Of a stretch of 64,000 nt of DNA, positions 25,234 through 55,955 are shown piece after piece. Below the pieces are notes generated by a model, which saw only the letters and a list, made by a program, of their open reading frames with translations, had not been told where the DNA came from and did no database searches. Every line of letters starts with the position of its first letter. Within the stretch, counting starts at the first letter, position 1. A program made the position numbers and the translations under genes. Source of the DNA: Alphaproteobacteria bacterium (lineage in GTDB: Bacteria > Pseudomonadota > Alphaproteobacteria > Reyranellales > Reyranellaceae); NCBI GenBank assembly GCA_019635875.1, contig JAHBYP010000001.1:930001-994000 (forward strand). The letters run 5' to 3'.

Positions 25234-25308
25234 TGGCTGGGGCGCCAGGATTCGAACCTGGGAATGGCGGAATCAAAATCCGCTGCCTTACCACTTGGCT
25301 ACGCCCCA
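25234..25308 (-). tRNA. tRNA-Gln (anticodon TTG), prophage integration target
   Basis: On the minus strand the 7-bp acceptor stem TGGGGCG pairs with CGCCCCA, followed by encoded GCCA. The T-loop segment GGTTCGAATCC and the anticodon loop with TTG are plain. Bases 25270-25308, the 5' half through the anticodon, lie within the att core and are supplied by the prophage copy; the 3' half is host. The gene is intact, but everything upstream of its 5' end is now phage DNA, so it depends on a promoter in the left end of the prophage. An AT-rich GGTTTAAAACC about 12 bases upstream is a possible -10 region. Confidence 0.95.
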
Positions 25309-25309
25309 T
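25270..25309. other. attL core of prophage (40 bp)
   Basis: The 40 bases are identical to 55916-55955 at the other end of the prophage and cover the 5' half of tRNA-Gln plus 1 base. Crossover anywhere inside leaves an intact tRNA here. Host DNA lies to the left and phage DNA, including the integrase gene, to the right. Confidence 0.93.
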
Positions 25310-25356
25310 TTGACAAGGTTTTAAACCATTTCAGGGCCTTACGTTACAGGCGTGTA

Positions 25357-25376
25357 TACAATCGTGTGTACAGAAA
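25357..25376 (+). repeat. att-arm direct repeat, left copy
   Basis: The stretch TACAATCGTGTGTACAGAAA recurs with one base fewer at 55829-55847 near the right end. Paired sequences flanking both att cores are what is expected of arm-type integrase or excisionase binding sites. Nearby GTATAC and GTGTAC hexamers (25354, 25387, 25401) may be part of the same protein-binding array. Confidence 0.55.
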
Positions 25377-25423
25377 CCGGGGAATCGTGTACAAGAATCT
25401 GTATACGACCGAGAGGCACCCCC

Positions 25424-26959
25424 ATGGCGAAGTATCCCGGCCTGTTCGAGAACCCCCGTGATGGAATCTGGCTGTACCGGAAAGCCATCCCGGAGGCGGT
25501 CAGAGACGTAATCGGTAAGACGATGTGGATCAAGTCGTTTGGAACGACGGACCGGCGCGAAGCCGAATCGAAATGGTCCCTGTTCGACGCGGAGTTCCAA
25601 TCGATGATCGCTCAGGCTCAGGGCCGGGCGCTGATCGAGACGAACAAGGATCATCGACGGGTAATCATGTGGGATGCCATCGCGGCGTGGCTGTACGCGT
25701 GCGCGGCCCAGAACGGTGGCCGGCTGCCGCTCCCGGAGAACGTCGAGATTCCGACCGAGTCCCGCATCACGTCGCACGCATTCACGTACGTCCGTCACCA
25801 GTTCCAGACGTGGGCCAAGGTCCACGCTCCGGACGCGGTCGAGGTCCTCAACCGGGGTGATCTCACTCAGGGCGGGATGCTGTTCCACCATGGTCTGACC
25901 GCCTCGTACTTCGTCGTCCGTGCCCTGTTAGAGCGGACCACGGCGGCGCCGATCCGGATCGAGCCAGAACCCCCGGTGGTCCCCGTGGATGCACCGAGGC
26001 TGGTCCAGATCGGGACGACACTCGAACAGGTCCAACGCGCGTGGTCGAACGAGACCGATCCCACGCCCAAGCATGAAGCCGATGTGACCCGAGCCCGGCT
26101 CATGTTTGAGGAAACCAATCCCGGGGTGAGCGTGGAACAGACCGAACGCGGCCACGTGGCGAAGTTTCGAGCCCGGCTCGGGGAACTCGAAACCTCGAAC
26201 AAAACCAAAAACCGATACCTCGCGGGAATCTCCGCCCTGTTCGGACACGCTCGGAAAAAGATGCTGCTGATCGATGCGAACCCGTTCGAGAACGTCAAGT
26301 TCACCGTCAAGGATGAGGAACCTCAGCGCGACGCGTTTACGGACGCGAACCTGAAAGTCTGGTTCGCCCATCCGACATTCACGAAGTTGGAAGTCGGCAC
26401 GCACGGTGCGGCTGAATACTGGCTCCCGCTGCTGGCCCTCTACCATGGTGCGCGTCAGTCGGAGATCGCCCAGCTTCACCGCGACGATGTGATTCGCGAT
26501 CCCGACAGCCGCGTCTGGTACATGTCGATCCGTGGTGAAGTCGGCGGCGATTCGGACAAGCGCGTCAAGAACACCGGTTCCCGGCGGATCGTGCCCCTCC
26601 ATCAGGCCGTGATCGATCTCGGGTTCTTGAAGTTCGTCGACCGATGTGAGGGGAGGTTGTTCCCGACGCTCAAACGTGGATCGAACGGCGGTTCGTTCAG
26701 CGCGGTATCGAAGTTCACCCGGGATCAACTCGACCACGTCGGGATCACCGATCCCCGACTGACCTTCCATAGCCTCCGGCACACGGCGCGTACCCGGGCC
26801 AGATCGACGACGGGAATCACCGAGGAACAGATGGACTACCTCGTGGGTCACGTGTCGGTGACGCAGGGGAGGAAGTACGGCACCCATGAACTCGCGGCGT
26901 TGAAAGCCGCCATTGATCGACTGACCTACCCGATCCGCGTGAAAGCGTGGAAATCCTGA
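25424..26959 (+). CDS. int: phage tyrosine integrase
   Basis: Site-specific recombinase of 511 residues. The N-terminus (KYPGLFENPRDGIWLYRKAI, then IGKTMWIKSFGTTDRREAE) matches the DUF6538-type N-terminal region of tyrosine integrases; a SAM-like core-binding domain follows around residues 200-290. Catalytic residues are visible: Arg in YHGARQSEIAQLHRDD (about 343), HSLRHTAR (H-x-x-R, about 448), His in VGHVS (about 474) and the nucleophile Tyr in KYGTHE (about 485). I chose the ATG with GAGAGG upstream, not the upstream GTG frame, which runs through the arm sites. It lies 115 bases from attL and reads into the prophage. Confidence 0.93.
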   Translation: MAKYPGLFENPRDGIWLYRKAIPEAVRDVIGKTMWIKSFGTTDRREAESKWSLFDAEFQSMIAQAQGRALIETNKDHRRVIMWDAIAAWLYACAAQNGGRLPLPENVEIPTESRITSHAFTYVRHQFQTWAKVHAPDAVEVLNRGDLTQGGMLFHHGLTASYFVVRALLERTTAAPIRIEPEPPVVPVDAPRLVQIGTTLEQVQRAWSNETDPTPKHEADVTRARLMFEETNPGVSVEQTERGHVAKFRARLGELETSNKTKNRYLAGISALFGHARKKMLLIDANPFENVKFTVKDEEPQRDAFTDANLKVWFAHPTFTKLEVGTHGAAEYWLPLLALYHGARQSEIAQLHRDDVIRDPDSRVWYMSIRGEVGGDSDKRVKNTGSRRIVPLHQAVIDLGFLKFVDRCEGRLFPTLKRGSNGGSFSAVSKFTRDQLDHVGITDPRLTFHSLRHTARTRARSTTGITEEQMDYLVGHVSVTQGRKYGTHELAALKAAIDRLTYPIRVKAWKS

Positions 26960-27221: not shown

Positions 27222-27514
27222 GCTGCATCCTCCGACGCCGTCAACAGCCGAGTGAGGCGAAGGATCGTCTCGCGCGAAGCCAGTTGCATTCGGCGGATGC
27301 AGAGTTTGATCATGTCGTGATCAGCCTCGCTCAAAGGTACGATCTTGTTGATCTCCTGAAGCAGTTCGATCCGCGCGCGAATGAGACCATCGTAGGCATC
27401 ACAGAGTTCCGCGTTCCCGGGCGGGCGGAACGAGTTCAGGAACTCGTACTGGCTGACATCGTCCTCCAGCTTGACCAGTTCCATGGTGGCGCGCTCGATC
27501 ATGTTGGAAGTCAT
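27218..27514 (-). CDS. hypothetical phage protein
   Basis: A 98-residue, mostly helical acidic protein (MIERATMELVKLEDDVSQYE, ELCDAYDGLIRARIELLQEI, HDMIKLCIRRMQLASRETIL). No domain is recognised. Both ends overlap neighbouring genes by ATGA, placing it in the middle of a three-gene translationally coupled operon. Position beside the integrase suggests an early or lysogeny-stage function, but that is inference only. Confidence 0.65.
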   Translation of the reverse strand: MTSNMIERATMELVKLEDDVSQYEFLNSFRPPGNAELCDAYDGLIRARIELLQEINKIVPLSEADHDMIKLCIRRMQLASRETILRLTRLLTASEDAA

Positions 27515-28407
27515 GCCACGTTCCTCCGGGTCTCAGACAGCCCATATGCGTCCTCATAGGTGGTCGGCTCCGACCAGCGCGGACGCAACACCACGACGTT
27601 CGACGGCGTCGGCTCCGGCGCGGTGATCGTGGGGAACCCGATCAGGTTGATCCGGGTCGGGGAGGACAGGGTCGCGAGCCGAGCGGAGAGTTCGGCGACG
27701 GTCGCCTCCAACTGGGAGACCCTCCCATCATCGATGACCGGGGCCGACGTGGTCTCGACCACCGGAAGGCGATCCCGATCCACAGAGGGTTCAGCCGTCC
27801 GGGCGAGGCGGGCCGCCTCGGGCCGGTTCAACACCCACTGCGCCATCAGGCGGGCATCGAAAAGTTCCAGAGGGATCGCCCGAGACATGTCGTGGTCCGG
27901 CCGCTGGCTCACCAAGTAATCCCCCAGTGTGGTGCCAAGTTCGTCGAACACGTCGTGGACACACAGGCTGAAACATCCCAGCCGGTGTTCGTCCCACCGC
28001 TCGAAGAACGATTCCTCGCTCTCCCCGGGCTGACGCGCACAGGGTCGGCCCTTCCTAAAGGGAGATTCCGCCGACTGCGGCGTGTACGCGGAGCCGTTCT
28101 CCTGAACCTCGAACGGACGCTCGCCGTAGTTCCTCGAACGGACCATGACCGGAACGTCATGCTCCCGACACACGTCGAGGAACGCCACCAGCGTCGACAG
28201 GTACGGGTCCTTACCCCGGCTCATCGACGTGAAAAGGTTCTCAAAGACCGACGATGTCGTCAGCACGCTCTGTGGAAGGGCGAGCCACGCCCGGAACAAC
28301 GCGGTCGGTTCCGACCACTTATTCAGGATGGCGACCTGAACGGTCCGGTCCGACTTCTCGCCGAACTGTCGAACGTGGTCGACATCTCGTACTTCTTTGA
28401 TCTTCAT
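27511..28407 (-). CDS. hypothetical phage protein, first gene of early operon
   Basis: A 298-residue protein. I chose the internal ATG (MKIKEVRDVDHV) because GGAGA lies 10 bases upstream, and because a terminator at 28426-28473 sits just before it, so the longer frame is unlikely. The first 200 residues look globular (TVQVAILNKWSEPTALFRAW, SVFENLFTSMSRGKDPYLST). Around residues 240-265 there is a short heptad-like segment (VSQLEATVAELSARLATL), followed by a Pro-rich tail. No family is recognised. It is preceded by a leader with a TAAATA promoter motif and an attenuator-like hairpin, so its expression is probably conditional. Confidence 0.7.
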   Translation of the reverse strand: MKIKEVRDVDHVRQFGEKSDRTVQVAILNKWSEPTALFRAWLALPQSVLTTSSVFENLFTSMSRGKDPYLSTLVAFLDVCREHDVPVMVRSRNYGERPFEVQENGSAYTPQSAESPFRKGRPCARQPGESEESFFERWDEHRLGCFSLCVHDVFDELGTTLGDYLVSQRPDHDMSRAIPLELFDARLMAQWVLNRPEAARLARTAEPSVDRDRLPVVETTSAPVIDDGRVSQLEATVAELSARLATLSSPTRINLIGFPTITAPEPTPSNVVVLRPRWSEPTTYEDAYGLSETRRNVA

Positions 28408-28425: not shown

Positions 28426-28473
28426 GAAAAAGGGTCCGATTCCTCGCGTCGCCAAACTGTCGGAACCGGACCC
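28426..28473 (-). terminator. rho-independent terminator/attenuator in leader of 298-residue gene
   Basis: On the minus strand a 12-bp stem (GGGTCCGGTTCC with GGAATCGGACCC, one G-T wobble) is followed by TTTTTC. It lies 19 bases before the start codon of the 27511-28407 gene and about 65 bases after a TAAATA promoter motif. A second short hairpin (GCCGGGCACGCCCGGC) precedes it at 28481-28496. Confidence 0.75.
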
Positions 28474-28539
28474 TGTCGATGCCGGGCACGCCCGGCTTGG
28501 AGAATCTGTGTTGATCGTGATTGGCGACGCGATCACTCG

Positions 28540-28545: not shown

Positions 28546-28629
28546 GGGATCACGCGCGAAACCGACTCCCAATCGAAAACTGGGTCGCTCATCGATGGGG
28601 ATCAAGCGGTTCGACGACATCGTCGATCA

Positions 28630-28980
28630 TTCGTATACACGCCGGAGGATGATCGATCCTCCCGGATGATGATCGATCCTCCAGAGGATGACCCTTCGAT
28701 GATCGAGCGGGGATGACCTGTCGAGGATTGATGGAATAATCGCGTCGCTCGCCTCCGGCTCGCTCGTTTGTTTGTATACACGCCGGAGGATGGGAGGATG
28801 ATTTCATCCTCTGGAGGATGAATCGCATCATTTCATCCTCACACTACACTTACACTCATCTTTCTTTAGATATTACTAAGGATAATAGATATAAAAGAGA
28901 GTGTATGTGTAGTGTGAGGACGACCGTCCTCTGGAGGATGATTTCATCCTCCCATCCTCCGGCGTGTATACAAACGAGCG
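28630..28980. repeat. GAGGAT repeat cluster with 220-bp AT-centred palindrome
   Basis: From 28761 to 28980 the sequence is a large imperfect palindrome. Outer arms 28761-28801 and 28944-28980 match in 37 of 37 bases apart from a 4-base TTTG insertion. Inner arms 28836-28857 and 28899-28920 match in 21 of 22. The 41-base centre (28858-28898) is very AT-rich, in sharp contrast with the rest. Across 28635-28960 I count about 13 copies of GAGGAT or its complement, several arranged as dyads such as TCATCCTCTGGAGGATGA. Each outer arm carries GTATACACGCCGGAGGATG, which also occurs at 28632. No open frame fits this stretch. It looks like an origin, centromere-like site or multi-operator. Confidence 0.8.
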
Positions 28981-29004
28981 AACCGAGGCGAAGCCGAGGG
29001 AGCG

Positions 29005-29190
29005 ACGATCATCACATCGATGTCGTGGTCGATGTCGTTCATCGATGTCAGTCGATCATCACATCGATGTCGTTCATCGATTCGTATACGAATAACCATC
29101 GATGTCGTGGACGATCATCCAGTCGATCATCCAGTCGATCATCCAGTCGATCATCCAGTCGATGTCGTCCATCGATCATCCAGTCGATCA
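29005..29190. repeat. short direct repeats (ATCGATGTCGT family and 12-bp GATCATCCAGTC)
   Basis: ATCACATCGATGTCGT occurs at about 29010 and 29053, with further CATCGATGTC copies between and after. Then GATCATCCAGTC is repeated four times head to tail from about 29112, with a fifth copy after a spacer near 29172. They end about 40 bases before the three-HTH gene. The spacing is too short and regular for CRISPR; it resembles iterons. Confidence 0.75.
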
Positions 29191-29232
29191 TCGAATCTCA
29201 TCATCGGCCGGGGCCAGTCGATCAAATATGGG

Positions 29233-29874
29233 ATGCCGATGCCGCCGATATCGACGATGCGGGTCCGTGGGATTCTCGACGGGATCGCCCGGGGAATCCC
29301 TCTGGGAGAGATCGCCCGAACCGTCCGGGTGGGAATCACCACGGCGTACCGGGTCAAGAACGATCCCGATGGTTGCCTCGAACGAGCCCGGCTCGGGGAA
29401 GCCCGACCACGACGACCCCCACGGGGATCACGACCGCGAGGGCGCCCGGCCCGCGATCTCGACCCCGGACTGATCCGGGCGATCCTCGCGAGCCCTCATG
29501 GGCGAGATCGCACAGCCCACGATCTGGGCGTGAGCGTCTGGTTCGTGCATCGGGTCCGTCGGGATCGGACAAATACCGGAATGCCGGCTCGAACCAAAGA
29601 CTTCATCCGTGAGGCGATCCTCGCCGCGCACGACGCGACCGTCGCCGAACTGGTCGCCCGGTTCCGGGTCAGCGCGTCCACGGTGGAGAGAATCCGTGGT
29701 CGGGCCGGGGTTGGAAGTCCCGGCCGGCGTGGTCGCACGTGGAACCGGGATGGGATCGACCACCGTCTGGCCCCGACCCTCCATCGGAGAATCCCGGCGG
29801 ATTGGTCCGAGATCATTCGGGTGCATGAACGTGCCAATGCTGGGCCGCCCAAACGTCCGCCCGGAACGTCCTGA
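29233..29874 (+). CDS. DNA-binding protein with three tandem helix-turn-helix units
   Basis: A 213-residue basic protein in which I see three homeodomain-like HTH units: GILDGIARGIPLGEIARTVR with VGITTAYRVK; LIRAILASPHGRDRTAHDLG with VSVWFVHRVR; and IREAILAAHDATVAELVARF with VSASTVERIR. Arg/Gly/Pro-rich linkers join them and the tail is Pro-rich. There is no integrase-core or other catalytic domain. The start is one of three nearby ATGs (29233, 29239, 29257); the frame running up through the repeats is rejected. It lies directly after iteron-like repeats, which it could bind as an initiator, partition or regulatory protein. Confidence 0.65.
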   Translation: MPMPPISTMRVRGILDGIARGIPLGEIARTVRVGITTAYRVKNDPDGCLERARLGEARPRRPPRGSRPRGRPARDLDPGLIRAILASPHGRDRTAHDLGVSVWFVHRVRRDRTNTGMPARTKDFIREAILAAHDATVAELVARFRVSASTVERIRGRAGVGSPGRRGRTWNRDGIDHRLAPTLHRRIPADWSEIIRVHERANAGPPKRPPGTS

Positions 29875-30073: not shown

Positions 30074-30481
30074 ATGAATCCAAATGAAAACCAGAAATCC
30101 GTCCACCCGGCGAAGCGACAGGCTCGGGAGGATCGATTCGTCGAACTAGCCACGGCCGTCCTGATGCTGATCGACGATAACGCCCACCAGCACGGACTGA
30201 CCGGAGACGAAGTCGCCGCCCTGTTGGATCAACCCGTCGAGACGATCAGGCCGATCCTGAGCCGGTTGTATCGCGATCTCGGACTGGCACGTCGGACCGA
30301 GCACCAGCGCCGGACCACGCGGTTCCGCAAGATGGCCTCGACCTACATGGTGGCGCCGGGGCTGCTCCATAGGTTGATCTGGGCTCACGGCGATGAAGCA
30401 CGGTGTCGGTTGATCATGAAGGTGGTCGTCGCCGCGATGGAACTTCATCGATGTGCGGGTTCGACCCGGATGGCCGCTTGA
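30074..30481 (+). CDS. winged-helix DNA-binding protein (putative phage regulator)
   Basis: A 135-residue protein whose central part reads as a winged helix: LATAVLMLIDDNAHQHGLTG, then DEVAALLDQPVETIRPILSR as helix-turn-helix, then LYRDLGLARRTEHQRRTTRF as the wing. The C-terminal helical part (LHRLIWAHGDEARCRLIMKV) may dimerise. No sensor domain is visible. It is the best candidate for a lysogeny or lytic-switch regulator, since no CI-like or Cro-like repressor was found elsewhere; this role is inference from position and from the dyad upstream. Confidence 0.6.
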   Translation: MNPNENQKSVHPAKRQAREDRFVELATAVLMLIDDNAHQHGLTGDEVAALLDQPVETIRPILSRLYRDLGLARRTEHQRRTTRFRKMASTYMVAPGLLHRLIWAHGDEARCRLIMKVVVAAMELHRCAGSTRMAA

Positions 30482-30849: not shown

Positions 30850-30861
30850 GTTCTCGATCCG

Positions 30862-30892
30862 AAAGGGGGGACCCGTGGGTCCCCCCTTTTTG
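30862..30892. terminator. bidirectional rho-independent terminator
   Basis: AAAGGGGGGACCC and GGTCCCCCCTTTTT form a near-perfect stem with a GTG loop and a T-run on the plus strand; on the minus strand the stem is followed by TTTC. It separates convergent genes ending at 30849 and 30913. Confidence 0.88.
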
Positions 30893-30912
30893 ATTCCGCC
30901 GGCCGCGATCCC

Positions 30913-31349: not shown

Positions 31350-31618
31350 CGCGATCCTCCGGGGGACGAGAGTGAGGAGACTCGGACGATGATCGAGTCC
31401 AGTCAATACGAGTTCACCCGTGTACGAATATTTGAATCAATCTTGCGCGGGACGAACTTGTATACGGCCGAACATTGTCGCCAAACGTATACGTTTCAGC
31501 CCAGTTGGGACCGGGCGGCTTCGATCAGATCGCGGAGTACTTAGGCCGACGCCTGCATTTGCCCGCACATGACGGCGAACGCCTGCACGGCTATGATCGA
31601 TCAACCAAGGGGAGATCG
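31350..31618. promoter_or_regulatory. divergent control region with two GTATAC palindromes
   Basis: The 269 bases between the divergent 31349 and 31619 starts hold GTATAC at about 31459 and the dyad AACGTATACGTT at 31489-31500, plus GTGTACGAATATTTGAATC near 31418. The region is more AT-rich than flanking genes. It probably contains promoters for both directions. No gene is seen in it. Confidence 0.45.
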
Positions 31619-33752: not shown

Positions 33753-33858
33753 GGATCAGATCGAGCGATCAGGATCAGATCGAGCGATCAGGATCGGATC
33801 GAAGGGGATCAGGATCGGATCGAAGGGGATCAGGATCAGATCGAAGGGGATCGATCAG
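33753..33858. repeat. GATC-rich tandem repeats
   Basis: A 19-bp unit GGATCAGATCGAGCGATCA occurs twice in tandem, followed by a related 21-bp unit GGATCGGATCGAAGGGGATC plus A twice, then a mixed copy. GATC occurs roughly every 7-10 bases. The surrounding 33660-33760 is also GATC-dense. Iteron-like; no CRISPR-type spacers. Confidence 0.75.
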
Positions 33859-33908
33859 GATTCGACAGGGATCGATCATCAACGGGGATGTTCATCGTTG
33901 ATCGCGGT

Positions 33909-34689: not shown

Positions 34690-35265
34690 ATGGCAACGCT
34701 CATCGATATCGTCACAGAGATTTCAGTCCGACTCGGACTCGAACCCGTTCAGTCGTTGGAAGAGGAAACGATTGAGGCTCAGGCGTTCGCGGTAGAGGTG
34801 CCGCTCGTGCTGGATCGGTGTCTCGCTCGCACCGCGTGGCCGTTCAACACGAAGACGCTCGAACTATCCCGGTTGGTGGGTACCCCGACGAATCCCCTCT
34901 ACCAGTATCAGTTCGCGATCCCCTCGGATTTGGTGCGGTTCGATCAGATCGTGGATACCGCTGGTCGACTCATCTTGGGCGAGTCGTGGACCCGAGAGGG
35001 TGATGTGATCCTCGCGAAGCGGGATCGACTCCTACTCAGGTACGGGCGGCGGATCAGCAACGCGGAGTTCGCGCTCGCTCCGGTCCCGTTCCAACATTAC
35101 TTCGCGACATCACTGGCGTATGCGGTGGCGCCAAAGCTGAGCGCCGCGACCACGGACGTACAGCGCGCCTATGGAGAGATTCAGGTCGCCTATCAGGCCG
35201 CGTTGGTGGACGCGTGCCGGTCGATCTCGCCCACGCCGTTGTTCGGGCCGGGATCGTGGCGATGA
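34690..35265 (+). CDS. tail tubular protein A (T7 gp11-like)
   Basis: A 191-residue protein that would form the gatekeeper ring of the short podovirus tail. Family features are the N-terminal IDIVTEISVRLGLEPVQSLE, the NTKTLELSRLVGTPTNPLYQ to YQFAIPSDLVRFDQI core, and LLRYGRRISNAEFALAPVPF followed by a C-terminal long helix (AYAVAPKLSAATTDVQRAYG). The length agrees with T7 gp11 (196). It is the first gene of the plus-strand virion operon and overlaps tail tubular protein B by ATGA. Confidence 0.85.
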   Translation: MATLIDIVTEISVRLGLEPVQSLEEETIEAQAFAVEVPLVLDRCLARTAWPFNTKTLELSRLVGTPTNPLYQYQFAIPSDLVRFDQIVDTAGRLILGESWTREGDVILAKRDRLLLRYGRRISNAEFALAPVPFQHYFATSLAYAVAPKLSAATTDVQRAYGEIQVAYQAALVDACRSISPTPLFGPGSWR

Positions 35266-37190
35266 CGAAGTTCCGTCTGACTCAGCATGCGTTCTCCGGC
35301 GGGGTGATCTCGAACGAACTCGCGTTCCGGTCGGATCAGAAGCTGTATGGGCTGGCGGTCAAGCGGGCGGACAACTTCATCTGTACCGGACAGGGACCCG
35401 CGTTGACTCGACCGGGATTCCAGTTCCGCGCGGCTGAGCCGGGCTTGGCGATGTGCGTGTTCCGGATCGGGCTGGATCAGATTTACCTGATGGTGTTCCG
35501 CGATGGGCTGATGAACGTGTACCGCGATGGAGTGGTGGTCGCGAGCGATGTCGTCGTGCCATGGACGGCCGCTCAGTTGCCGATGGTGCGGTTCGCGCAG
35601 AACTCGACTTGGCTGGTCGGGTTCCACGAGGATGTGTTCCCTCAGAGGATCGTGCGGGGTGACGATGACGCGACATGGTCGGTCGGGAACTTCCCCATTA
35701 CTGTGTACCCGTACAATCGATTCCCCGGTCATGATGCGATCACGATGTCCGCCTCCGCCACGACTGGATCGGTCACGTTGACCACCACCGGGGATGTGTT
35801 CTCCGCCGATAACGTCACCTATTCGACTGTGTTCTGGTTGCAAGAGGGGTACGTGCAGATCACGGCGGTCGCCTCGGCTACGTCCGCCACGGGGACCGTG
35901 TTGAAGACGTTGGGGTCGACCGATCCGGACGCATTTCGGGAGCAAGCGTGGTCACCGATCCGAGGTTATCCGATCTGCGGGGTGTTCTTCCAAGAGCGAT
36001 TGGTGATTGGTGGATCGCGTGATCTTCCCGGCTCGATCTGGGGATCGACCATCGGCAAGCCGTGGGACTTCGACGACGTTCAGGATGAGACCGGCTTGGA
36101 TGGTGGACCGAACCCGGCCGCTGATGATTCGTTCCACTTCGATCTGTCGGATGGATCGGCGAACCGGTTCGTCGACATCGTCGGCGGTGAAAAGGTCTCG
36201 CTGTTCATGTCCGATGGGGAGTGGTTGCAGTTGGAGGCGGCGATGTCGGGTGCGCCTGACATCTCGGTCCAGTTCACCCCGATCACCGCATATGGGTCAC
36301 TGGATAACGGGATCAGGGCGATCAACGCGGACGGGACTGCGATGTTCGTGGATCGCCGTGGGACTCTGAGGGCGTTCGACTACATGGTGGATCGTGAGGG
36401 GTACGATTCGACATCGCTGATGGCAATCGCTCCGGAGATCATCACCGATCCGACCGCGACCGCCTACTTGCAGAGGTTCGAGAACAACTCGGTCGTGGTG
36501 GTGCTCAATGGGGATGGGACGTTCTCCGCGTTGATCTTCGACAAGTCGACGGGGGTTCGGGCGTGGTGCCGGATCGAACTCGCCGAAGGATGCTCGTGCG
36601 TGGACGTGTGCACGGTGGGGGATGACCTGTACGCGTTGATCGACTTCGATGAGGGTCGATATCTGGCGAAACTTGTCGCGGGTTCATACTTGTTGGACCT
36701 GCACTCGACCGCCACGGACACCGCGAAAGCCACATGGACGGGGTTCACGAGGTTCGCGGATCAGACCGTCACCGTGGTCGGGGACGGGTTCACGTTCAGC
36801 GATGTCGAGGTGGACGAGACGGGCGCGTTCACGCTGAGCCGGGCGGTCGCGACCGTGGTGGTCGGACTCCCGTACGTGTGCGAGTTGGAGACGCTACCCC
36901 CGCCGCTCGTCATCGATGGTCAGTCCAAGCGGGGCGAGCGGACCCGTAAGGTCGATCTCGATCTGTCCCTCACCGAGACTCGTTCGATCCACGTGGATGG
37001 GCGACGCGTTCCGTTGCGGCAGTTGGGTTCGAGCCTGTTGGATGTACCGCCGCAGCCGTTCACCGGGATCAAGCGGGTCCTTCTGAATGGGGTCGCGGCG
37101 GAACCCACGCTCACCATCTCGGTCCGCGATCCGTATCCCGCCACGATCAACGGGATCACGGTCGGACTCGATACGAGCACGGCGCGATGA
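35262..37190 (+). CDS. tail tubular protein B (T7 gp12-like nozzle)
   Basis: A 642-residue protein, somewhat shorter than T7 gp12 (794). The N-terminus FRLTQHAFSGGVISNELAFR and LYGLAVKRADNFICTGQGPA is the conserved gp12-like start, and SPIRGYPICGVFFQERLVIG followed by DLPGSIWGSTIGKPWDFDDV is the most diagnostic segment. The remainder is beta-rich. The start at the ATG overlapping the gp11-like stop removes 16 extra residues of the longer frame. It ends overlapping the next gene by ATGA. Confidence 0.87.
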   Translation: MTKFRLTQHAFSGGVISNELAFRSDQKLYGLAVKRADNFICTGQGPALTRPGFQFRAAEPGLAMCVFRIGLDQIYLMVFRDGLMNVYRDGVVVASDVVVPWTAAQLPMVRFAQNSTWLVGFHEDVFPQRIVRGDDDATWSVGNFPITVYPYNRFPGHDAITMSASATTGSVTLTTTGDVFSADNVTYSTVFWLQEGYVQITAVASATSATGTVLKTLGSTDPDAFREQAWSPIRGYPICGVFFQERLVIGGSRDLPGSIWGSTIGKPWDFDDVQDETGLDGGPNPAADDSFHFDLSDGSANRFVDIVGGEKVSLFMSDGEWLQLEAAMSGAPDISVQFTPITAYGSLDNGIRAINADGTAMFVDRRGTLRAFDYMVDREGYDSTSLMAIAPEIITDPTATAYLQRFENNSVVVVLNGDGTFSALIFDKSTGVRAWCRIELAEGCSCVDVCTVGDDLYALIDFDEGRYLAKLVAGSYLLDLHSTATDTAKATWTGFTRFADQTVTVVGDGFTFSDVEVDETGAFTLSRAVATVVVGLPYVCELETLPPPLVIDGQSKRGERTRKVDLDLSLTETRSIHVDGRRVPLRQLGSSLLDVPPQPFTGIKRVLLNGVAAEPTLTISVRDPYPATINGITVGLDTSTAR

Positions 37191-37651
37191 AGCTACCGCG
37201 CGGGGTGAAGATCACCGAACCGAACCGGCAAGCGCTCGGGTACATCTTTGATCGGCTGCGACCGGATGATCTCGACGAGTACCAGCGGATGAACCCGGAC
37301 ACGTACGGGAGGGATCACTTCATCGATGCGTGGTTGAAGCTGACCGAGGCGTTCATCGTGCGCGTCCATGGTCGACCCGCCTTGGTGTTCGGGATGAACG
37401 TTCTCCCCCACGTGGTCTATCTGGTCGCGCAGGGGACCGAGGTGGTCGATCAGTACGGGATCGCGATGACCCGTGCCGCGCGGGGATATCTCGGGTGGAT
37501 TCGGTCCGAGTATCCGTTGCATCGAATCCACATCGCCCCGTCCGTCACGCACACGGGGATACGTCGCTGGCTTGAACGGTTGGGATGCGTGGACACCCAA
37601 GTTCGACTGAGGCGGGGCCGGGGCGAACTCGCCCTGATGGAAGCCCGCTAA
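37187..37651 (+). CDS. phage protein, GNAT-like fold, in the T7 gp13 position
   Basis: A 154-residue protein between the nozzle and the gp14-like gene, the position of gp13 in T7. The sequence (ITEPNRQALGYIFDRLRPDD, FGMNVLPHVVYLVAQGTEVV, GIAMTRAARGYLGWIRSEYP, IHIAPSVTHTGIRRWLERLG) has the strand-helix order of a GNAT-like acyltransferase fold, which several podovirus gp13-like proteins share, without a clear acetyl-CoA loop. It probably assists core assembly rather than acylating anything. ATGA overlap with the upstream gene; its stop codon overlaps the next TAAATA motif. Confidence 0.65.
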   Translation: MKLPRGVKITEPNRQALGYIFDRLRPDDLDEYQRMNPDTYGRDHFIDAWLKLTEAFIVRVHGRPALVFGMNVLPHVVYLVAQGTEVVDQYGIAMTRAARGYLGWIRSEYPLHRIHIAPSVTHTGIRRWLERLGCVDTQVRLRRGRGELALMEAR

Positions 37652-37654
37652 ATA
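37649..37654 (+). promoter_or_regulatory. phage late promoter-like motif GCTAAATA, internal virion genes
   Basis: The TAAATA element includes the TAA stop of the preceding gene and lies 42 bases before the ATG of the gp14-like gene. Confidence 0.5.
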
Positions 37655-37690
37655 CCAGCAAGAATCAACCCGAACGGGGATCAATCAAGA

Positions 37691-38215
37691 ATGTGCGAAC
37701 CTGCAAGTATCGCGATGGCCGTGGGCGCGTTGGCAATGTCCGTGATGTCGGGCATCCAACAGAAGAACATGGCGGACGCTCAGGCCAAACAGTACACGAA
37801 CGCGGCGATCAACGCCGACACTGAGACGGCGATCCGCGAATCCGAGCGGGAGCAACTCGCGGCACGTCAACGCGGTCAGGTCAAAGCGATGATGGCCGGG
37901 TCCGGGGCGGGGATGAACTCGAACAGCTTCGTCGACGCGCTCGGGTTCATGGACGCTGGTGAGGCGACGGACCTGTATAATATTCGATTCGCCGGGGACA
38001 ATCGTAGCAGCGCCCTAGAGGCGAGCGCGGCGAACGCGAGATGGGCCGGATCGAACGCGCTATGGGGGAGCGTCATCGGTGGTGGACTTCGGGCCGCCTC
38101 GATCTTCGGCGGAGGTGCGTTCGGCGGAGGGGCGGGCGGCAAGATCGGGAACGCGATTGGATCGTCCGGTGGTGGATTGAGTCTGGGTCTGACCCGGTTC
38201 GGGGAGACCCTCTAA
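37691..38215 (+). CDS. internal virion protein (T7 gp14-like)
   Basis: A 174-residue protein with the typical gp14-like start MCEPASIAMAVGALAMSVMS, an amphipathic helical middle (AKQYTNAAINADTETAIRES, EREQLAARQRGQVKAMMAGS) and a Gly-rich hydrophobic C-terminus (IGGGLRAASIFGGGAFGGGA). Such proteins form part of the ejectosome channel across the cell envelope. It is followed after 1 base by the gp15-like gene. Confidence 0.78.
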   Translation: MCEPASIAMAVGALAMSVMSGIQQKNMADAQAKQYTNAAINADTETAIRESEREQLAARQRGQVKAMMAGSGAGMNSNSFVDALGFMDAGEATDLYNIRFAGDNRSSALEASAANARWAGSNALWGSVIGGGLRAASIFGGGAFGGGAGGKIGNAIGSSGGGLSLGLTRFGETL

Positions 38216-38216
38216 G

Positions 38217-40814
38217 ATGGCGAAGATCACCATACCGGGCGCGGTCGTTCCGTTCCAAGCCGGCACCACGAGCGTTTACATCCCTCCCGCGAACACCGCG
38301 CTTCTCGATAAGGGTGCGGACAAGCTGTTCGCGATGGCGGAGGAACGCGAGGAACAGGCCGGACTTGCGGAGGGTCGCGAGGCACAGTCCCGCGCGGGTT
38401 CCGATCCGCAGTCGACGGGAATCCTCGGACGGTTGACCGCGCGTGGTCGAGGCTTCGATCAGGGCGCGACCGAGGAACTCGCCGGGATCAAGATGAACGA
38501 TCTTCTCGACAAGACCCGGAAGCTACAGGACCAGTTCGCCGCAGACCCACAGGGGTTCAACGAGGCGTTCGTCCAGATGCGTAGGGAGTGGATCGAGGGA
38601 GTCTTACCGCACCAGCGGCAAGGTCTGTTGCGGCTCGCCGATGGGATGCAACAACGTGGGAACTCCGCGATCCAGACCGGGCTTGCCCGTGCGGATGCGG
38701 AGCGGCACGTCACGTCGCTGATCGACTCGGTCGAGAAAGCGACGGACGCCATCTATACCGACACGATCTCGAACCGCGATCCCGCCGCCACTTCGCTCCG
38801 GGTGCAAACCACGCTTGAAATGATCGAGCGCGCACAGGCGAATGGCCGTATTACACCAATGCAGGCGCGGACCATGGCGGGCAACGTCAACATGATCCGG
38901 CGCCGGGCTGATGCGATCCGCGCGTTCGAGGCGAACCCGTCACAGGCGTTGATCGACTCGATTGAGAAAGGCACCGGCCAGTTCGCGGGCGGGAACTACA
39001 CGGTCGAGGAACGCGAAGGCTTGGGCCGGTACCTCACGGGTCGACTGGCGCGGCGTCAGGCTGCGGCGGCGTCGGCTGCGGCGATTGGTGCGGCTGCGCT
39101 GCGGCGACGACTCGACGACAACGAGCGCTCGATTGAACGGACCGGTCAACCCATCGAAGGGATGTCCGAGGCGGAAGTCCGGAAGGCACTCGCGAAGGAC
39201 CCCGCGCTTGCGGACGAATGGGTCGAGCGGTTCCGTCAGGCTGGAATCTCGTTCGACTTCAACCGGAAAATCCAAGGCGCAAGCCCGGCCGAAGTCGACG
39301 CGATGCTAGCGGCGAGCCAACCCCGTGAGGGATCGCCCACGTACGCGCTCGAACAGAAAGCGCATGACGCCCGGGTGAAGGCCGCGCGTGATCGCGCCAC
39401 CACTATCGAGAATGACGGTGCCGGCTACGCGTTGAGGACGAACCCGACGTTGCGGACCGACATGATCAGCCCCGACGATCAGACCCGGTTCAACGCGTTC
39501 GACGCGTTGCTGACGCGTCAACGTGCCATCGGTGTACCCCTGATGAAACAGTCCGTGGTCACGAACGAACAGGCCGAACGCCACCAGTCCAACCTAAACG
39601 GATTGTTCGCGCGCGATCCGGCTGCGGCGGCCGAGTATCTCGGTGAGTTGAAGCGGTTCTATGGACCCCATTTCGATTCCGTGATGGGTCGGCTCGGTCA
39701 GGGAAAGGACAAGATCAACCCGTCCGTTCAGATCGTCGCCGACCTGAACGGGCCGAACGATCTGCAAGCCCGAACCGATCTGATCCGCGCGTTCCAATCC
39801 GACAACGAGGAACTCGTGAAGGCCGCGAACATGCGCGAGGCGAACGCCGCGACGACTGTCGTGAAGGCGTTGACCAGCAACATGCGCGATTGGCAAGAGA
39901 CGATGATCGCCGCGAACCGGTCCAGTATCTACGGCGATAGCAAGGTCAAGGCGATGAACGAGGCGGTTCGTCGATACGCACTGTTCCTAGTGGGTCACCG
40001 TGGCCTGAGCCCGAGCGATGCCGCCGACAAGGCAACCGCCGATCTGGTTGGCCGGTACGAGTACATCCGGGATTCCGGGTTCTCCGTGCGGGTGCCGAAG
40101 AACCTTGGTGTGACCACCGGTCAGGTCGAGAAAGCCGCGCAGTTCGCGATGGATCAGTTCGACCCGAAGACGATGCGACCGACACCACCGGCCAGCGTCG
40201 GCGAAACCCTCACTCAGGAACAGCGCGACAAGGTCACGTTGTACGAGATGCGGGAGAAAGGATCGTGGGTCACCATGCATGATCAGTCCGGAATCTATCG
40301 GGTCATGCCGAACGGGCGGGCGTTCCTGATCAACCGAGATGGTCGAGAGACCGCGCTGGTGGTGAGGTTCGCCGACGTGCCCGGATTGGCTGCCGCTCAT
40401 GATCGTGCGCGTGACGCGAAGGGACACCCGACGTTCGAGCCGTCCATCGTGGATGTGCCGCGAACCGATCCCCGTGTGGACCGGGTGACCAACGTCGAAC
40501 GGTGGCAGCAATCGTTCGACCGTAAGGTCGAGACCCCACGCAACGAACCCGCCACCGGACCGGACAACCTCAACCCGGATCGTTGGAGCGATGCGTATCC
40601 GAGACCCGAACCCAAGCCGGCCGCACCCGTACCGGCTGGTTCGACTTCGCGTGAGCGGTACGAGGCGATCAAGGAACGGGATGATCGGGCGATGCGCTTG
40701 CGCGACATCAACACGGACGCGTTCGAGCCGAGCGTGATCCCGTCGCGGCAGTCGACCGGCCAGCACATCAGGGATCGTGAGGAACGCAAGGCACGGGAGA
40801 AGAACAAGCGATGA
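38217..40814 (+). CDS. large internal virion protein (T7 gp15-like)
   Basis: An 865-residue, mostly helical soluble protein in the gp15 position. Segments such as DKGADKLFAMAEEREEQAGL, IQTGLARADAERHVTSLIDS and LINRDGRETALVV fit internal core proteins; T7 gp15 is 747 residues. No enzymatic motif was found. The C-terminus is Pro- and Arg-rich (PEPKPAAPVPAGSTSRERYE). It overlaps the next gene by ATGA. Assignment rests mainly on size, composition and order between gp14-like and gp16-like genes. Confidence 0.7.
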   Translation: MAKITIPGAVVPFQAGTTSVYIPPANTALLDKGADKLFAMAEEREEQAGLAEGREAQSRAGSDPQSTGILGRLTARGRGFDQGATEELAGIKMNDLLDKTRKLQDQFAADPQGFNEAFVQMRREWIEGVLPHQRQGLLRLADGMQQRGNSAIQTGLARADAERHVTSLIDSVEKATDAIYTDTISNRDPAATSLRVQTTLEMIERAQANGRITPMQARTMAGNVNMIRRRADAIRAFEANPSQALIDSIEKGTGQFAGGNYTVEEREGLGRYLTGRLARRQAAAASAAAIGAAALRRRLDDNERSIERTGQPIEGMSEAEVRKALAKDPALADEWVERFRQAGISFDFNRKIQGASPAEVDAMLAASQPREGSPTYALEQKAHDARVKAARDRATTIENDGAGYALRTNPTLRTDMISPDDQTRFNAFDALLTRQRAIGVPLMKQSVVTNEQAERHQSNLNGLFARDPAAAAEYLGELKRFYGPHFDSVMGRLGQGKDKINPSVQIVADLNGPNDLQARTDLIRAFQSDNEELVKAANMREANAATTVVKALTSNMRDWQETMIAANRSSIYGDSKVKAMNEAVRRYALFLVGHRGLSPSDAADKATADLVGRYEYIRDSGFSVRVPKNLGVTTGQVEKAAQFAMDQFDPKTMRPTPPASVGETLTQEQRDKVTLYEMREKGSWVTMHDQSGIYRVMPNGRAFLINRDGRETALVVRFADVPGLAAAHDRARDAKGHPTFEPSIVDVPRTDPRVDRVTNVERWQQSFDRKVETPRNEPATGPDNLNPDRWSDAYPRPEPKPAAPVPAGSTSRERYEAIKERDDRAMRLRDINTDAFEPSVIPSRQSTGQHIRDREERKAREKNKR

Positions 40815-42568
40815 GCGGTTCCGATCTCGAATCCCTTGGCATCTTCAACGATCCCCGGATGGATGTCCGGGGCGTCGATCAATACGAGTCCTCCACGGGG
40901 GAGGTTCTCGGTGCGGTGTGGGACGACACCATCGATACCAATCCGGTGAACTATCTCGACCGCATGGCGCGCCGTTGGACCGGGAACTCGCCCACGCTGT
41001 TCGGGTTCGAGAATCCGTTCTTCGCGGATTCCGAACTGTTGTCGGCGGAGGAAGCGAACAAGCGATATGGGATCACCGTGGATGGTCGACGGTTGCTCGG
41101 CTGGGATTCGGGAACGACCGTGCGGGAGCGCGAGGCGAAGGAACTCCGCGCGCTGAAAGAGATCGAACTTCAACGTGAGTCGATCATCCGCCGTGGCCGT
41201 GGCGGTGTGGTGCAGACCGGGGCGAAGTTCTTCACCGGGTTGGGCGCATCGATGCTCGATCCGCTGAACCTGTTGATGGGCACGTTCCCATTTGTACGCG
41301 AAATCCGTGGTGCGACCATCCTAGGACGTGCCGCATGGCGCGCCGGGATCGGTGCGGCGGAAGGTGCGGTTGGAACGGCGATGCTAGAGCCGATCATCGC
41401 GGCCGGATCGACGGCGGAGCAACGCGAGTACACGTGGGCGACGGCGCTCGAAAACGTCCTGTACGGATCGGTGTTCGGATCGGTCGCGCATCCCGCGTTG
41501 GGTGGTGCGATGGACGCGTACCGCCGGATGCGCGGTGCCCCGGTGGAACTGCAACAGATCGCCTCGATCACCGAGAACGCCCCGGGCCAGACGCAAGCGG
41601 CGATGATGCGGGTCGGGATGATCGACACCCTAGAGGGGCGACCGGTCCGGGTGGAACTCCCGCTGATCGAACACCTCTTGGATTCCAGCATCGTCCGATC
41701 CCCGGCGGAACACGCGCAACGGCAGTTCGAGGCGATCACCCGGGGGATCGATGAGATCACCACCGCGCGGACCCGGATCGGTCAGACCCGGGACCAGCTT
41801 GTCGCCGCTCGTGCTGAACTCGACCGGCTTCGCGCGACCGGGGCGGACCCTGTTGCGATTCGTGCGGTCGAGGATCGCATCGATACGTTGATGGACGACG
41901 CGGGGTGGAACGAGAAAGCGCTTCGCGACATGGGGATCGATCCGAACTCGACGGTCGATCCGCCTCCGGTCGAGGCGATCCGGAAACAGGTGCAGGCACA
42001 GGCCGCGCTCGATACGGCGAGCCGTGCCGTACAGGAACAGACCGAGGCGCTCGCCACGTTGAGGGCGACCGAAGGGGTGGACCCCGCGCGGATCAGCGAA
42101 GCGGAATCCCGCCTGACCGAGGCGAAGCGGATCGAGACCGAACGGCAGGCCGAACTCGAACGGGCCGGCGCGGATATCCCCGCGATGATCCGCCGGGAAG
42201 CGGACGCGTTGACCGAGGCGAAGAACGAGTTCCTCGCCCGGGTGGATCGCTATCTGGAGGAACGCACGAACCCGGTGAACCGGATCAGCGCGGATGATGC
42301 GCGGCTGGTCGAACGTGCCGATCTCGAATACCAGCGGGCACGCGGCGCGGCGGAGGCGGAGCGTCAGCCCGGCGGAAAGACGCAACAGTCCATGCTGGAA
42401 GCCGAGGTTGCGGACCTTCGTAAGCGGATCGCCGACATGGACGCCGTTGGTGAACTCGGACCGCAGTTCCGCGATGAGATCGATCAACTCAACGCGGCGG
42501 CCGCACAGATCGAGCGGGCCAACTTGGAAGCGACCGCGCTCGAAAAGATGTACGCGTGCATGCGTTAA
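40811..42568 (+). CDS. internal virion protein (N-terminal half of gp16-type ejection protein)
   Basis: A 585-residue protein. Residues 135-230 are the membrane-active signature of large podovirus ejection proteins: a hydrophobic GASMLDPLNLLMGTFPFVRE, then GAAEGAVGTAMLEPIIAAGS and ENVLYGSVFGSVAHPALGGA. The C-terminal 250 residues form a long coiled coil (Glu/Ala/Arg heptads, for example AQAALDTASRAVQEQTEALA). The lytic transglycosylase domain at the N-terminus of T7 gp16 is absent. In related phages this is followed by, or fused to, a protein like that encoded at 42565-45135, which here is on the opposite strand. The stop overlaps that gene's stop in TTAA. Confidence 0.75.
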   Translation: MSGSDLESLGIFNDPRMDVRGVDQYESSTGEVLGAVWDDTIDTNPVNYLDRMARRWTGNSPTLFGFENPFFADSELLSAEEANKRYGITVDGRRLLGWDSGTTVREREAKELRALKEIELQRESIIRRGRGGVVQTGAKFFTGLGASMLDPLNLLMGTFPFVREIRGATILGRAAWRAGIGAAEGAVGTAMLEPIIAAGSTAEQREYTWATALENVLYGSVFGSVAHPALGGAMDAYRRMRGAPVELQQIASITENAPGQTQAAMMRVGMIDTLEGRPVRVELPLIEHLLDSSIVRSPAEHAQRQFEAITRGIDEITTARTRIGQTRDQLVAARAELDRLRATGADPVAIRAVEDRIDTLMDDAGWNEKALRDMGIDPNSTVDPPPVEAIRKQVQAQAALDTASRAVQEQTEALATLRATEGVDPARISEAESRLTEAKRIETERQAELERAGADIPAMIRREADALTEAKNEFLARVDRYLEERTNPVNRISADDARLVERADLEYQRARGAAEAERQPGGKTQQSMLEAEVADLRKRIADMDAVGELGPQFRDEIDQLNAAAAQIERANLEATALEKMYACMR

Positions 42569-45135: not shown

Positions 45136-46715
45136 TCAATCGGTTCCTCACCACCCATGGCGGCGCCGAACATGCTCATGATGTCAGGGCCGACATTCGC
45201 GGCAGCCTTTCCGGCTTCCGCCGCCATCTCGGTATTCCCCTGTCCGTTCGCGATAGCCATACCCCCGGCGACGGCGGTCCCCATCTGCATCGCTTTGAGT
45301 TCCGCCTCGACCTGTGCGGCCGGCTTCAACAGATGCGGCGGGACGATCTGTTCCCACAGGAACCGGTTCGTCGCCGGTACGTCGAGAATCTGCATCGCCT
45401 CGCGTCCGCCAAGCTGTTTCATCATGGCGACCCCCTCATAGGTTTCGCGGAATCGCTGCATCTGGTGGACCCGCGTGGTGAGTGCGCGGATGTTCAAGAG
45501 GACCGGCGATTCCGGACCCAACGGGAAATCCGGCATTCGGCCGGACGCCTGCAACGCCATCACCACCGAGCGGATCAACGGTTCGAGTAGTTCCTTTTCG
45601 AGTCGCCGTGCGGCACCACCGATCCGGTCGAACCACTGTGCCGAACGCAAGTCGACTTCTCCCTTCGTCATCCGATCCGATCCGGGAAGAACGTCGACCA
45701 TCAGCCCTTGGCGGACCTTGGTCTGTTGCATCACGATCATCTCGGTTCCGAGCCGGACATCCGCGCCGGTCGGGATCATGTCGAGTTTCGAGTTCGGGTC
45801 CATGTAGTGGACCATGTCGGGCTGAATCCGCATGTTGCGGAGTTCAGGATCGTTCGAGGTGTACGAGGGTCGCGCCTGACGTTCACCCGCCGCCATCGTG
45901 TCGCGGACCATCTGGATCAACGTGTTGATGTCACCGAGGCACGAACGGACCGGGCTGTCCCCGTAGGGCTGGCCGCTCACCCGGTAGAACCGGAAGACGA
46001 TGAACGGACGGTACGCGCATTGCTTCGTATGGAGCCGCTCGAATCCCTTCGCGGTCCACACCGAGAACTCCCAACGCTTACCGGATGGCGTCATCGCCTC
46101 GACCAGATCGACCGATTCGTCCGGGGTCTTCTCGTTCAACTCGACGATCCACGAGGGGCACTCGTCCGCGTACTTCTCGACCACCTTCCGCGCGGGCAAC
46201 CGGTACTCGCGGAACACCGTATCGATGTAGCTCGATCCATCGTCGAGGAAGTAGAGACCCGAGATGTTCAACGCGGTGAAGTAGAGTCCATCGTCTTCGA
46301 TCTCGATCCCGATGGCGCCGACGCCACAGATGATCGAATCGGTGACGGATTCCTCGACCACCGAATAGAAACCGGAGTCGAGTAGCTCCGCATAGAACAC
46401 CCCTTCGGACTGAGCGAGTACGTATTCGAGTTCGCCGGTCGCGCCGTACTCCCGAGCGAGCGGGACAATGTCGAACTCACACCAACGGCGGTCCATCGGT
46501 ACCAAGTATTTCGTGACCGTGCTGGCAAGCTGTTGCACCCCTACGGTCGCGGTCGAATCGTTCGTGTCGCGGCGATCCCGCACGATCCCGTTCGGGCACC
46601 ATCCCTGTGGGATCGTCACCTCGTAACACTTGGCGATCTCGGTCTCGAATGGTTGGCGACGCGACTTCGCCACGGCCAGCCGAGATCGCGCCTGTTCGGC
46701 GGTCAACTCGGACAT
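45132..46715 (-). CDS. portal/head-tail connector protein (T7 gp8-like)
   Basis: A 527-residue protein (T7 gp8 has 536). Characteristic parts are the N-terminal AKSRRQPFETEIAKCYEVTI and PQGW, WCEFDIVPLAREYG, FIVFRFYRVSGQPYGDSPVR, RSCLGDINTLIQMVRDTMAA and LMVDVLPGSDRMTKGEV. It forms the dodecameric portal at the capsid vertex through which DNA is packaged. It starts 3 bases after the gp6.7-like gene and its stop overlaps the internal virion gene by ATGA. In T7 order the portal precedes scaffold and capsid; here it follows them. Confidence 0.9.
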   Translation of the reverse strand: MSELTAEQARSRLAVAKSRRQPFETEIAKCYEVTIPQGWCPNGIVRDRRDTNDSTATVGVQQLASTVTKYLVPMDRRWCEFDIVPLAREYGATGELEYVLAQSEGVFYAELLDSGFYSVVEESVTDSIICGVGAIGIEIEDDGLYFTALNISGLYFLDDGSSYIDTVFREYRLPARKVVEKYADECPSWIVELNEKTPDESVDLVEAMTPSGKRWEFSVWTAKGFERLHTKQCAYRPFIVFRFYRVSGQPYGDSPVRSCLGDINTLIQMVRDTMAAGERQARPSYTSNDPELRNMRIQPDMVHYMDPNSKLDMIPTGADVRLGTEMIVMQQTKVRQGLMVDVLPGSDRMTKGEVDLRSAQWFDRIGGAARRLEKELLEPLIRSVVMALQASGRMPDFPLGPESPVLLNIRALTTRVHQMQRFRETYEGVAMMKQLGGREAMQILDVPATNRFLWEQIVPPHLLKPAAQVEAELKAMQMGTAVAGGMAIANGQGNTEMAAEAGKAAANVGPDIMSMFGAAMGGEEPIE

Positions 46716-46718
46716 GCG

Positions 46719-46910
46719 TTAGAACGCCCCGAGTTTGAACGGTCCGGTTTTCAGATCGGCGAACGGATCGACCGGGGCGTCCAGCGATCCCGCACCAATC
46801 GCGGAAAGCCGGGCATTGTTGCGGGCCTTTCGGCCGGACTCGCGACGTTCCGCCATGACCTGTTCGGTCGGCTTCGCGGCGGGCACATCAGGGGCGGACA
46901 TGAAACACAT
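46719..46910 (-). CDS. small virion protein (T7 gp6.7-like)
   Basis: A 63-residue protein starting MCFMSAPDVPAAKPTEQVMA, matching the MCF start and small basic/Pro character of T7 gp6.7, a minor head protein next to the portal. The rest (RRESGRKARNNARLSAIGAG) is basic and flexible. It sits directly before the portal gene, as in T7. It follows a TAAATA motif at 46 bases and a hairpin, so it is the first gene of the portal transcript. Confidence 0.65.
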   Translation of the reverse strand: MCFMSAPDVPAAKPTEQVMAERRESGRKARNNARLSAIGAGSLDAPVDPFADLKTGPFKLGAF

Positions 46911-46950
46911 CTTTTTGGTTGCTCCGGTTGGGAGGTTTGTTGGTTCCGAG

Positions 46951-46956
46951 TATTTA
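46951..46956 (-). promoter_or_regulatory. phage late promoter-like motif GATAAATA, portal unit
   Basis: A minus-strand TAAATA element 41-46 bases before the gp6.7-like start, just downstream of a GC-rich hairpin that ends the capsid unit. Confidence 0.55.
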
Positions 46957-46976
46957 TCTGCGAGGGCTGAACGCAG

Positions 46977-47006
46977 ATCGCCCCGCGCGTTGGAACGGCG
47001 GGGCGA
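46977..47006 (-). terminator. GC-rich hairpin, probable terminator of capsid unit
   Basis: On the minus strand TCGCCCCGC and GCGGGGCGA pair with a loop of about 12 bases, shortly after the stop at 47034. There is no T-run, so termination would be partial or factor-dependent. Confidence 0.5.
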
Positions 47007-47033
47007 CTGGAATCAGATCAGGCCGGGATCGGC

Positions 47034-47468: not shown

Positions 47469-47511
47469 TGTGAGTGTTCCTCATCTTGTTAGTGTTGGGG
47501 ATCGAGCCGGA

Positions 47512-49448: not shown

Positions 49449-49454
49449 CTGTTC

Positions 49455-55847: not shown

Positions 55848-55872
55848 TGTGGTCGATCTCGTATACGAGAGG

Positions 55873-55915: not shown

Positions 55916-55955
55916 GAATCAAAATCCGCTGCCTTACCACTTGGCTACGCCCCAT
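55916..55955 (-). pseudogene. attR core: orphaned 5' half of tRNA-Gln
   Basis: These 40 bases are identical to 25270-25309 and represent the host's original 5' half of the tRNA gene through the anticodon. The 3' half is missing: after GATTC the sequence continues with phage DNA. It cannot make a functional tRNA. It marks the right end of the prophage. Confidence 0.93.

What the first reader, a model, noticed from the sequence alone, without database searches (positions are those of the whole stretch)
28761..28980. 220-bp palindrome with a 41-bp AT-rich centre in a GC-rich prophage
Outer arms match in 37 of 37 bases apart from a 4-base insertion, and inner arms in 21 of 22. The centre is almost all A/T. 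No ORF fits. Large dyads with an AT-rich middle next to a DNA-binding protein gene are typical of replication origins, plasmid centromeres or complex operators. Because no replication genes were recognised, this is the best candidate origin.
Basis: partly seen in the sequence, partly recalled or inferred. Interest (0 to 1): 0.62.

Follow-up and report, generated by a model that had tools for sequence, protein, structure and literature searches.

The report
Palindromic origin-like control region in prophage
A long, nearly symmetrical stretch of DNA with an easily melted centre sits between two early genes of a dormant virus, recurs in a distant relative, and is most likely the place where the virus starts copying its DNA or switches its early genes on and off.

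Summary
The palindrome is real. Outer arms 28761-28801/28944-28980 match 37/37 apart from a 4-base insertion; inner arms 28836-28857/28899-28920 match 21/22; the 41-bp centre is 80% A/T and holds the lowest-GC stretch of the window. It scores 37 against at most 15 in 60 shuffled prophages. It lies in a 30.7-kb podovirus-type prophage inserted in tRNA-Gln, with no recognised replication gene. A remnant prophage in another genus (G008, L005) carries the same element between the same two genes, although their proteins are only about 30-40% identical: a 24-bp inner-arm block is identical, GAGGATG and GTATAC boxes sit in the same places, and the A/T centre is kept. So it is a functional cis element, not an artefact or transposon remnant. 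Two more distant prophages have A/T-rich DNA between converging iteron arrays beside a primase-helicase gene. I favour an iteron-type replication origin fused with early-gene operators (about 0.5); a pure operator is the main rival (0.33). Telomere-resolution site and MITE are rejected; a partition site is unlikely. New here: GTATAC boxes, 9 in the prophage against 1.1 expected, look like a phage-wide operator; and the left flanking gene has a conserved attenuator-like leader.

The parts
28761..28980 (.). whole palindrome
28761..28801 (.). left outer arm with GTATAC and two GAGGATG boxes; carries the 4-base insertion
28944..28980 (.). right outer arm
28836..28857 (.). left inner arm TCCTCACACTACACTTACACTC; 28833-28856 is identical (24 bp) to the right arm of the relative L005 (opposite strand)
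28899..28920 (.). right inner arm, 21/22 complementary to the left
28858..28898 (.). 41-bp A/T-rich centre, candidate unwinding element
28633..28691 (.). partial outer repeat: GTATACACGCCGGAGGATGATCGATCCTCC, CCGGATGATGATCGATCCTCC, TCCTCCAGAGGATGA
29006..29196 (.). right-hand repeats: CGATCATC x8 (CGATCATCCAGT in 12-bp tandem), CATCGATG, GTATAC at 29084
29233..29874 (+). tandem helix-turn-helix DNA-binding protein (L005 homologue 34% identical in alignment); candidate initiator or regulator
30074..30481 (+). small winged-helix-like protein; the relative has a 145-aa protein in the same position, 20% identical over 64 aa and not significant
27511..28407 (-). gene X, no known family; the conserved left neighbour (L005 homologue 36-41% identical over its matched part)
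28427..28532 (-). gene X leader: anti-loop strand 28532-28521, GC hairpin 28496-28481, terminator 28473-28462/28443-28432 with loop 28461-28444 and U-tract, ending about 20 bp before the start codon
25270..25309 (.). attL repeat (40 bp) in tRNA-Gln 25234-25308 (-)
55916..55955 (.). attR repeat (40 bp)
25424..26959 (+). tyrosine integrase (start codon chosen by eye)
25354..25406 (.). GTATAC boxes at 25354 and 25401 with two GTGTACA-like boxes between, at the integrase promoter or att arm
31460..31492 (.). two GTATAC boxes upstream of membrane-protein genes
55861..55866 (.). GTATAC box on the attR side

Best explanation
The palindrome is the core of the prophage's early control region and most likely its replication origin. 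Proposed steps: (1) a phage DNA-binding protein, most likely the adjacent tandem helix-turn-helix protein with or without its winged-helix partner, binds the inverted GAGGATG and ACACT boxes on both sides; (2) the resulting complex strains and opens the 41-bp A/T-rich centre; (3) host helicase and polymerase load there, since the phage encodes no recognised ones. The GTATAC boxes at its edges are operator sites that tie the region to the same regulator that acts at the integrase and other early promoters. Shown: the anatomy, its conservation, the gene context, and the lack of recognised replication genes. Inferred: protein binding, melting and initiation.
For: Symmetry far beyond chance. The centre holds the lowest-GC stretch of the window. 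The same architecture lies between the same two genes in G008, with a 24-bp identical block, though the proteins are only about 30-40% identical. The ACACT arms and inverted GAGGATG array were seen only here, as expected of a once-per-genome origin, while GTATAC boxes recur at other control regions. Two more distant prophages sharing structural genes have A/T-rich DNA between converging iteron arrays, next to a primase-helicase gene and a probable small-terminase gene (G333 L213:17518-17716, ACCTAACG x9; G243 L215:16707-16958, CGTAACGC x5). Lambda iterons are inverted repeats, and iteron arrays go with an A/T-rich segment in lambda and plasmid origins (PMC5043065). No convincing sigma-70 promoter was found in the centre (2 hits against 1.2 expected in the window region, 0 in L005).
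Against: No initiator, loader, helicase or primase was recognised in the prophage. The G333 primase-helicase finds nothing in G000 or G008, so the G333/G243 comparison is one of layout, not homology. No DnaA box (at most 1 mismatch) or IHF consensus lies in the region. A site between divergent genes beside a DNA-binding gene is also the classic place for an operator. The A/T-centre similarity between the two phages is only modest (33 of 2000 shuffles as good). Only two phages carry the element.
Confidence: 0.5

Rival explanations
1. A complex operator and promoter region only: the tandem helix-turn-helix protein (or another regulator) binds the symmetric boxes to switch divergent early transcription between lysogeny and lysis, with no role in replication.
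For: Divergent genes flank it and one encodes a DNA-binding protein. GTATAC boxes at its edges recur at the integrase promoter, upstream of the membrane-protein genes and at attR: 9 in the prophage against 1.1 expected, 0 in the rest of the window.
Against: The gene X leader, with a CCTAAATA shared by both phages at its 5' end, lies over 200 bp from the palindrome in both, so the centre need not be its promoter. No good promoter match lies in the centre. The ACACT arms are absent from other promoters.
Confidence: 0.33
2. A partition site (centromere) bound by a phage protein.
For: Arrays of inverted repeats beside a DNA-binding gene.
Against: No ParA or ParB family protein was found among the early proteins scanned; the element is a chromosomal prophage with integrase and att sites.
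Confidence: 0.05
3. It acts as RNA: a transcribed long hairpin (terminator, processing or antisense element).
For: Both strands can form a very stable hairpin (DNA fold z -19.9).
Against: A palindrome folds well whatever its role. Rfam hits over it are miRNA hairpins far below their gathering scores. In L005 the arms are less complementary (76%) while the boxes are kept, which favours protein binding sites over pairing.
Confidence: 0.07
4. A telomere-resolution site, an insertion element with terminal repeats (MITE), or an assembly artefact.
For: Large inverted repeat in one assembly.
Against: The centre is a 41-bp stretch without matching arms, the prophage is integrated with att sites, and no protelomerase was found. 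Single copy. The element recurs in another genus between the same genes, which excludes an artefact or a recent insertion.
Confidence: 0.02

Closest known systems
Phage lambda origin (O-protein iterons plus A/T-rich segment)
   Same: Several binding sites that are themselves inverted repeats, an A/T-rich segment, dependence on host replication enzymes (PMC5043065)
   Different: Symmetric arrays on both sides of the A/T segment; located between divergent genes rather than inside the initiator gene; no O or P homologue recognised
Origin of the V. cholerae PLE satellite (RepA, NCR3)
   Same: A noncoding stretch with semi-palindromic iterons, bound by an initiator that the mobile element encodes (PMC7145576)
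   Different: PLE RepA is of the RepA_N family; no such family was found here
Iteron arrays beside the primase-helicase genes of the G333 and G243 prophages
   Same: A/T-rich DNA between converging repeat arrays, in prophages with related structural genes
   Different: Different repeat sequence; a primase-helicase gene adjoins there and is absent here
Lambdoid operator regions
   Same: Operators between divergent early genes, with a regulator gene adjacent (own knowledge)
   Different: Far larger and more symmetric; A/T centre without a recognisable promoter
pIP501 / pT181 replicons with attenuated rep leaders
   Same: Gene X has a terminator hairpin just before its ribosome-binding site; in pIP501 attenuation in the repR leader controls the initiator (PMC4981023)
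   Different: Here a strand of the same leader is complementary to the terminator loop; no antisense RNA or Rep homology is shown

Membership tests
Iteron-type replication origin | Multiple repeated initiator-binding sites | tested here: inconclusive
   GAGGATG/CATCCTC and ACACT boxes are present and conserved; binding not shown
Iteron-type replication origin | Adjacent A/T-rich unwinding element | tested here: met
   41 bp, 80% A/T; lowest-GC stretch of the window; melting itself not shown
Iteron-type replication origin | Linked initiator gene of a known family | tested here: not met
   Flanking proteins match no initiator family
Iteron-type replication origin | Autonomous replication | not testable with these tools
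   needs an experiment
Phage operator region | Repeated operator boxes at several phage promoters | tested here: met
   GTATAC boxes at several control regions, 9 against 1.1 expected
Phage operator region | Promoters overlapping the operators | tested here: inconclusive
   2 sigma-70-like hits against 1.2 expected; 0 in L005
Protelomerase target | Unbroken symmetry through the centre and a protelomerase gene | tested here: not met
   41-bp centre without matching arms; no protelomerase found; integrated prophage
MITE | Several copies in the genome | tested here: not met
   single copy
Partition site | Linked ParA/ParB genes | tested here: not met
   none among the early proteins scanned
Attenuated rep leader (pT181/pIP501 type) | Intrinsic terminator in the leader of the rep gene, with an alternative pairing | tested here: inconclusive
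   Terminator before the gene X ribosome-binding site and loop complementarity in both phages; gene X is not a known Rep; Rfam pT181 ctRNA hit in L005 below its gathering score (27.5 against 56 bits)

The most novel reading that the evidence does not exclude
The region is a compact phage replicon of an undescribed kind: a symmetric box/ACACT palindrome opened by a new initiator family (the tandem helix-turn-helix protein or gene X), with gene X dosed by a built-in transcription attenuator, letting a podovirus-type prophage replicate without encoding any polymerase, primase or helicase.
Probability: 0.27. Interest if true: 0.65.

Novelty: new variant of a known kind. Interest (0 to 1): 0.45.

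Why it matters
It gives a testable place for how a 30-kb temperate podovirus with no recognised replication genes copies its DNA, points to two uncharacterised protein families as candidate initiator or regulator, and gives a small cis element that can be cloned and tested directly. The attenuator-like leader of gene X adds an RNA control layer that is open to test.

Tried and rejected
Exact pattern GTGTAGTGTGAGGA in genome contigs and viral contigs: too short, no hit with a second arm nearby. The gapped palindrome pattern in viral-contig hit five similar coding stretches, unrelated. Relatives of gene X, the HTH protein and the structural protein in viral contigs: none. DNA match to known phages: chance only. 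Gene X in phages and plasmids: none. Class-wide protein search for gene X: only G008 convincing. Integrase relatives at E 1e-40: none. The G009 match (L006) overlaps an ABC transporter gene and is a false hit. AlphaFold models of gene X and the HTH protein were poor (pLDDT about 51); a PDB fold search with the gene X model gave nothing. DnaA and IHF sites: none. GC skew is confounded by gene orientation.

Full report
Observation. The palindrome at 28761-28980 is as described: outer arms 37/37 with a 4-base insertion, inner arms 21/22, a 41-bp centre of 80% A/T. Its inverted-repeat score is 37; sixty dinucleotide-preserving shuffles of the prophage gave at most 15. As single-stranded DNA the region folds at -94.7 kcal/mol, z -19.9. 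The lowest-GC 60-bp stretches of the whole window lie in and around the centre. Weaker symmetry extends to about 28611-29111 through repeated boxes. The region is single copy in the 6.2-Mb genome.

Setting. A tRNA-Gln gene (25234-25308, minus strand) shares a 40-bp repeat (25270-25309) with 55916-55955, which marks a 30.7-kb prophage of lower GC. It has an integrase and podovirus-type structural genes: portal, capsid, terminase, tail tubular and internal virion proteins. No replication protein was recognised in the proteins scanned. The best database match of a neighbouring host gene is alphaproteobacterial, so the host is probably an alphaproteobacterium.

Neighbours. To the left, on the minus strand, is gene X (27511-28407), of no known family. 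To the right, on the plus strand, are a protein with tandem helix-turn-helix units (29233-29874) and a small winged-helix-like protein (30074-30481).

A relative. Among 75 genomes of the same bacterial family, one convincing homologue of gene X appeared, in G008, a different genus. There the same two genes flank a related palindrome (L005, about 966-1180). The HTH proteins align at 34% identity; gene X aligns at 29% over its full length and 36-41% over the matched part. Despite this divergence, 24 bp of the inner arm are identical on the opposite strand. A GTATAC box lies 12 or 13 bp before a GAGGATG box, CATCCTC boxes follow, and an A/T-rich centre comes next. L005 also has GTATAC boxes at 27-bp spacing. 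The G008 element looks like a remnant: few phage genes were recognised beside it. Conservation in a second genus excludes an assembly artefact and argues for selection on the boxes.

Distant comparison. Prophages in G333 and G243 share structural genes with this one at about 22-28% identity. Each has a noncoding stretch with A/T-rich DNA between converging arrays of short repeats (ACCTAACG x9 in 17518-17716 of L213; CGTAACGC x5 in 16707-16958 of L215), between a primase-helicase gene and a probable small-terminase gene. This is likeness of layout, not of sequence, and I infer that those stretches are origins from the adjoining gene. The primase-helicase has no match in G000 or G008.

GTATAC boxes. 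The prophage holds nine GTATAC sites against 1.1 expected; the rest of the window has none. They sit at the integrase promoter or att arm (25354, 25401), in the palindrome region (four), upstream of membrane-protein genes (31460, 31487) and beside attR (55861). This looks like the operator set of a phage regulator, or in part integrase arm sites.

Gene X leader. In both phages an intrinsic terminator ends just before the ribosome-binding site of gene X, preceded by a 6-bp GC hairpin (GCCGGG..CCCGGC and GCCGAG..CTCGGC), and an upstream strand is complementary to the terminator loop: 12 bp here and 10 bp in L005, of different sequence. Shuffles of the upstream strand reach these lengths in 1 and 12 of 20,000 cases. 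This suggests transcription attenuation, as in the repR leader of pIP501 (PMC4981023), although no antisense RNA is shown and gene X is not a known initiator.

Interpretation. The inner arms and the inverted GAGGATG array were seen only at this site, the centre holds the least GC-rich DNA, and no convincing promoter lies in it. This favours an iteron-type origin over a pure operator, with GTATAC boxes as the operator layer. Lambda iterons are also inverted repeats with an A/T-rich segment (PMC5043065). The case stays near even odds, because no initiator family is recognised, no DnaA or IHF site was found, and the position between divergent genes is also typical of operators. Membership in the known origin families is therefore not claimed; the claim is that it works like one.

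Noticed in passing
window 28427-28532 (-) and L005 1362-1461 (+): Attenuator-like leader of gene X: terminator directly before the ribosome-binding site, with a loop-complementary upstream strand in both phages and different sequence in each.
   Followed up: partly
window 25354, 25401, 28633, 28774, 28966, 29084, 31460, 31487, 55861: GTATAC boxes confined to the prophage control regions (9 against 1.1 expected), a likely phage-wide operator set.
   Followed up: partly
window 25270-25309 / 55916-55955: The att repeat covers the 5' half of tRNA-Gln (minus strand), so the phage appears to supply the 5' part of the tRNA rather than the more usual 3' part.
   Followed up: no
L213 17518-17716 and L215 16707-16958: Converging iteron arrays with A/T-rich DNA beside primase-helicase genes in distant prophages.
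   Followed up: partly
window 33756-33870: Degenerate repeats of the GATCAGGATCGGATCGAAGGG type in a noncoding stretch before the tail genes.
   Followed up: no
window 30857-30894: Strong terminator-like hairpin (GGGGGGACCC/GGGTCCCCCC, then a T-run) closing the rightward early operon.
   Followed up: no
window 34690-42568 (+) and 42565-54738 (-): Tail and internal virion genes run rightward, head and packaging genes leftward, converging at 42.57 kb.
   Followed up: no
window 7010-7080: Host hairpin CCTGTCATCCCGAGCGCAGCGAGGGATCCAGG with 32-nt arms and a 7-nt loop.
   Followed up: no
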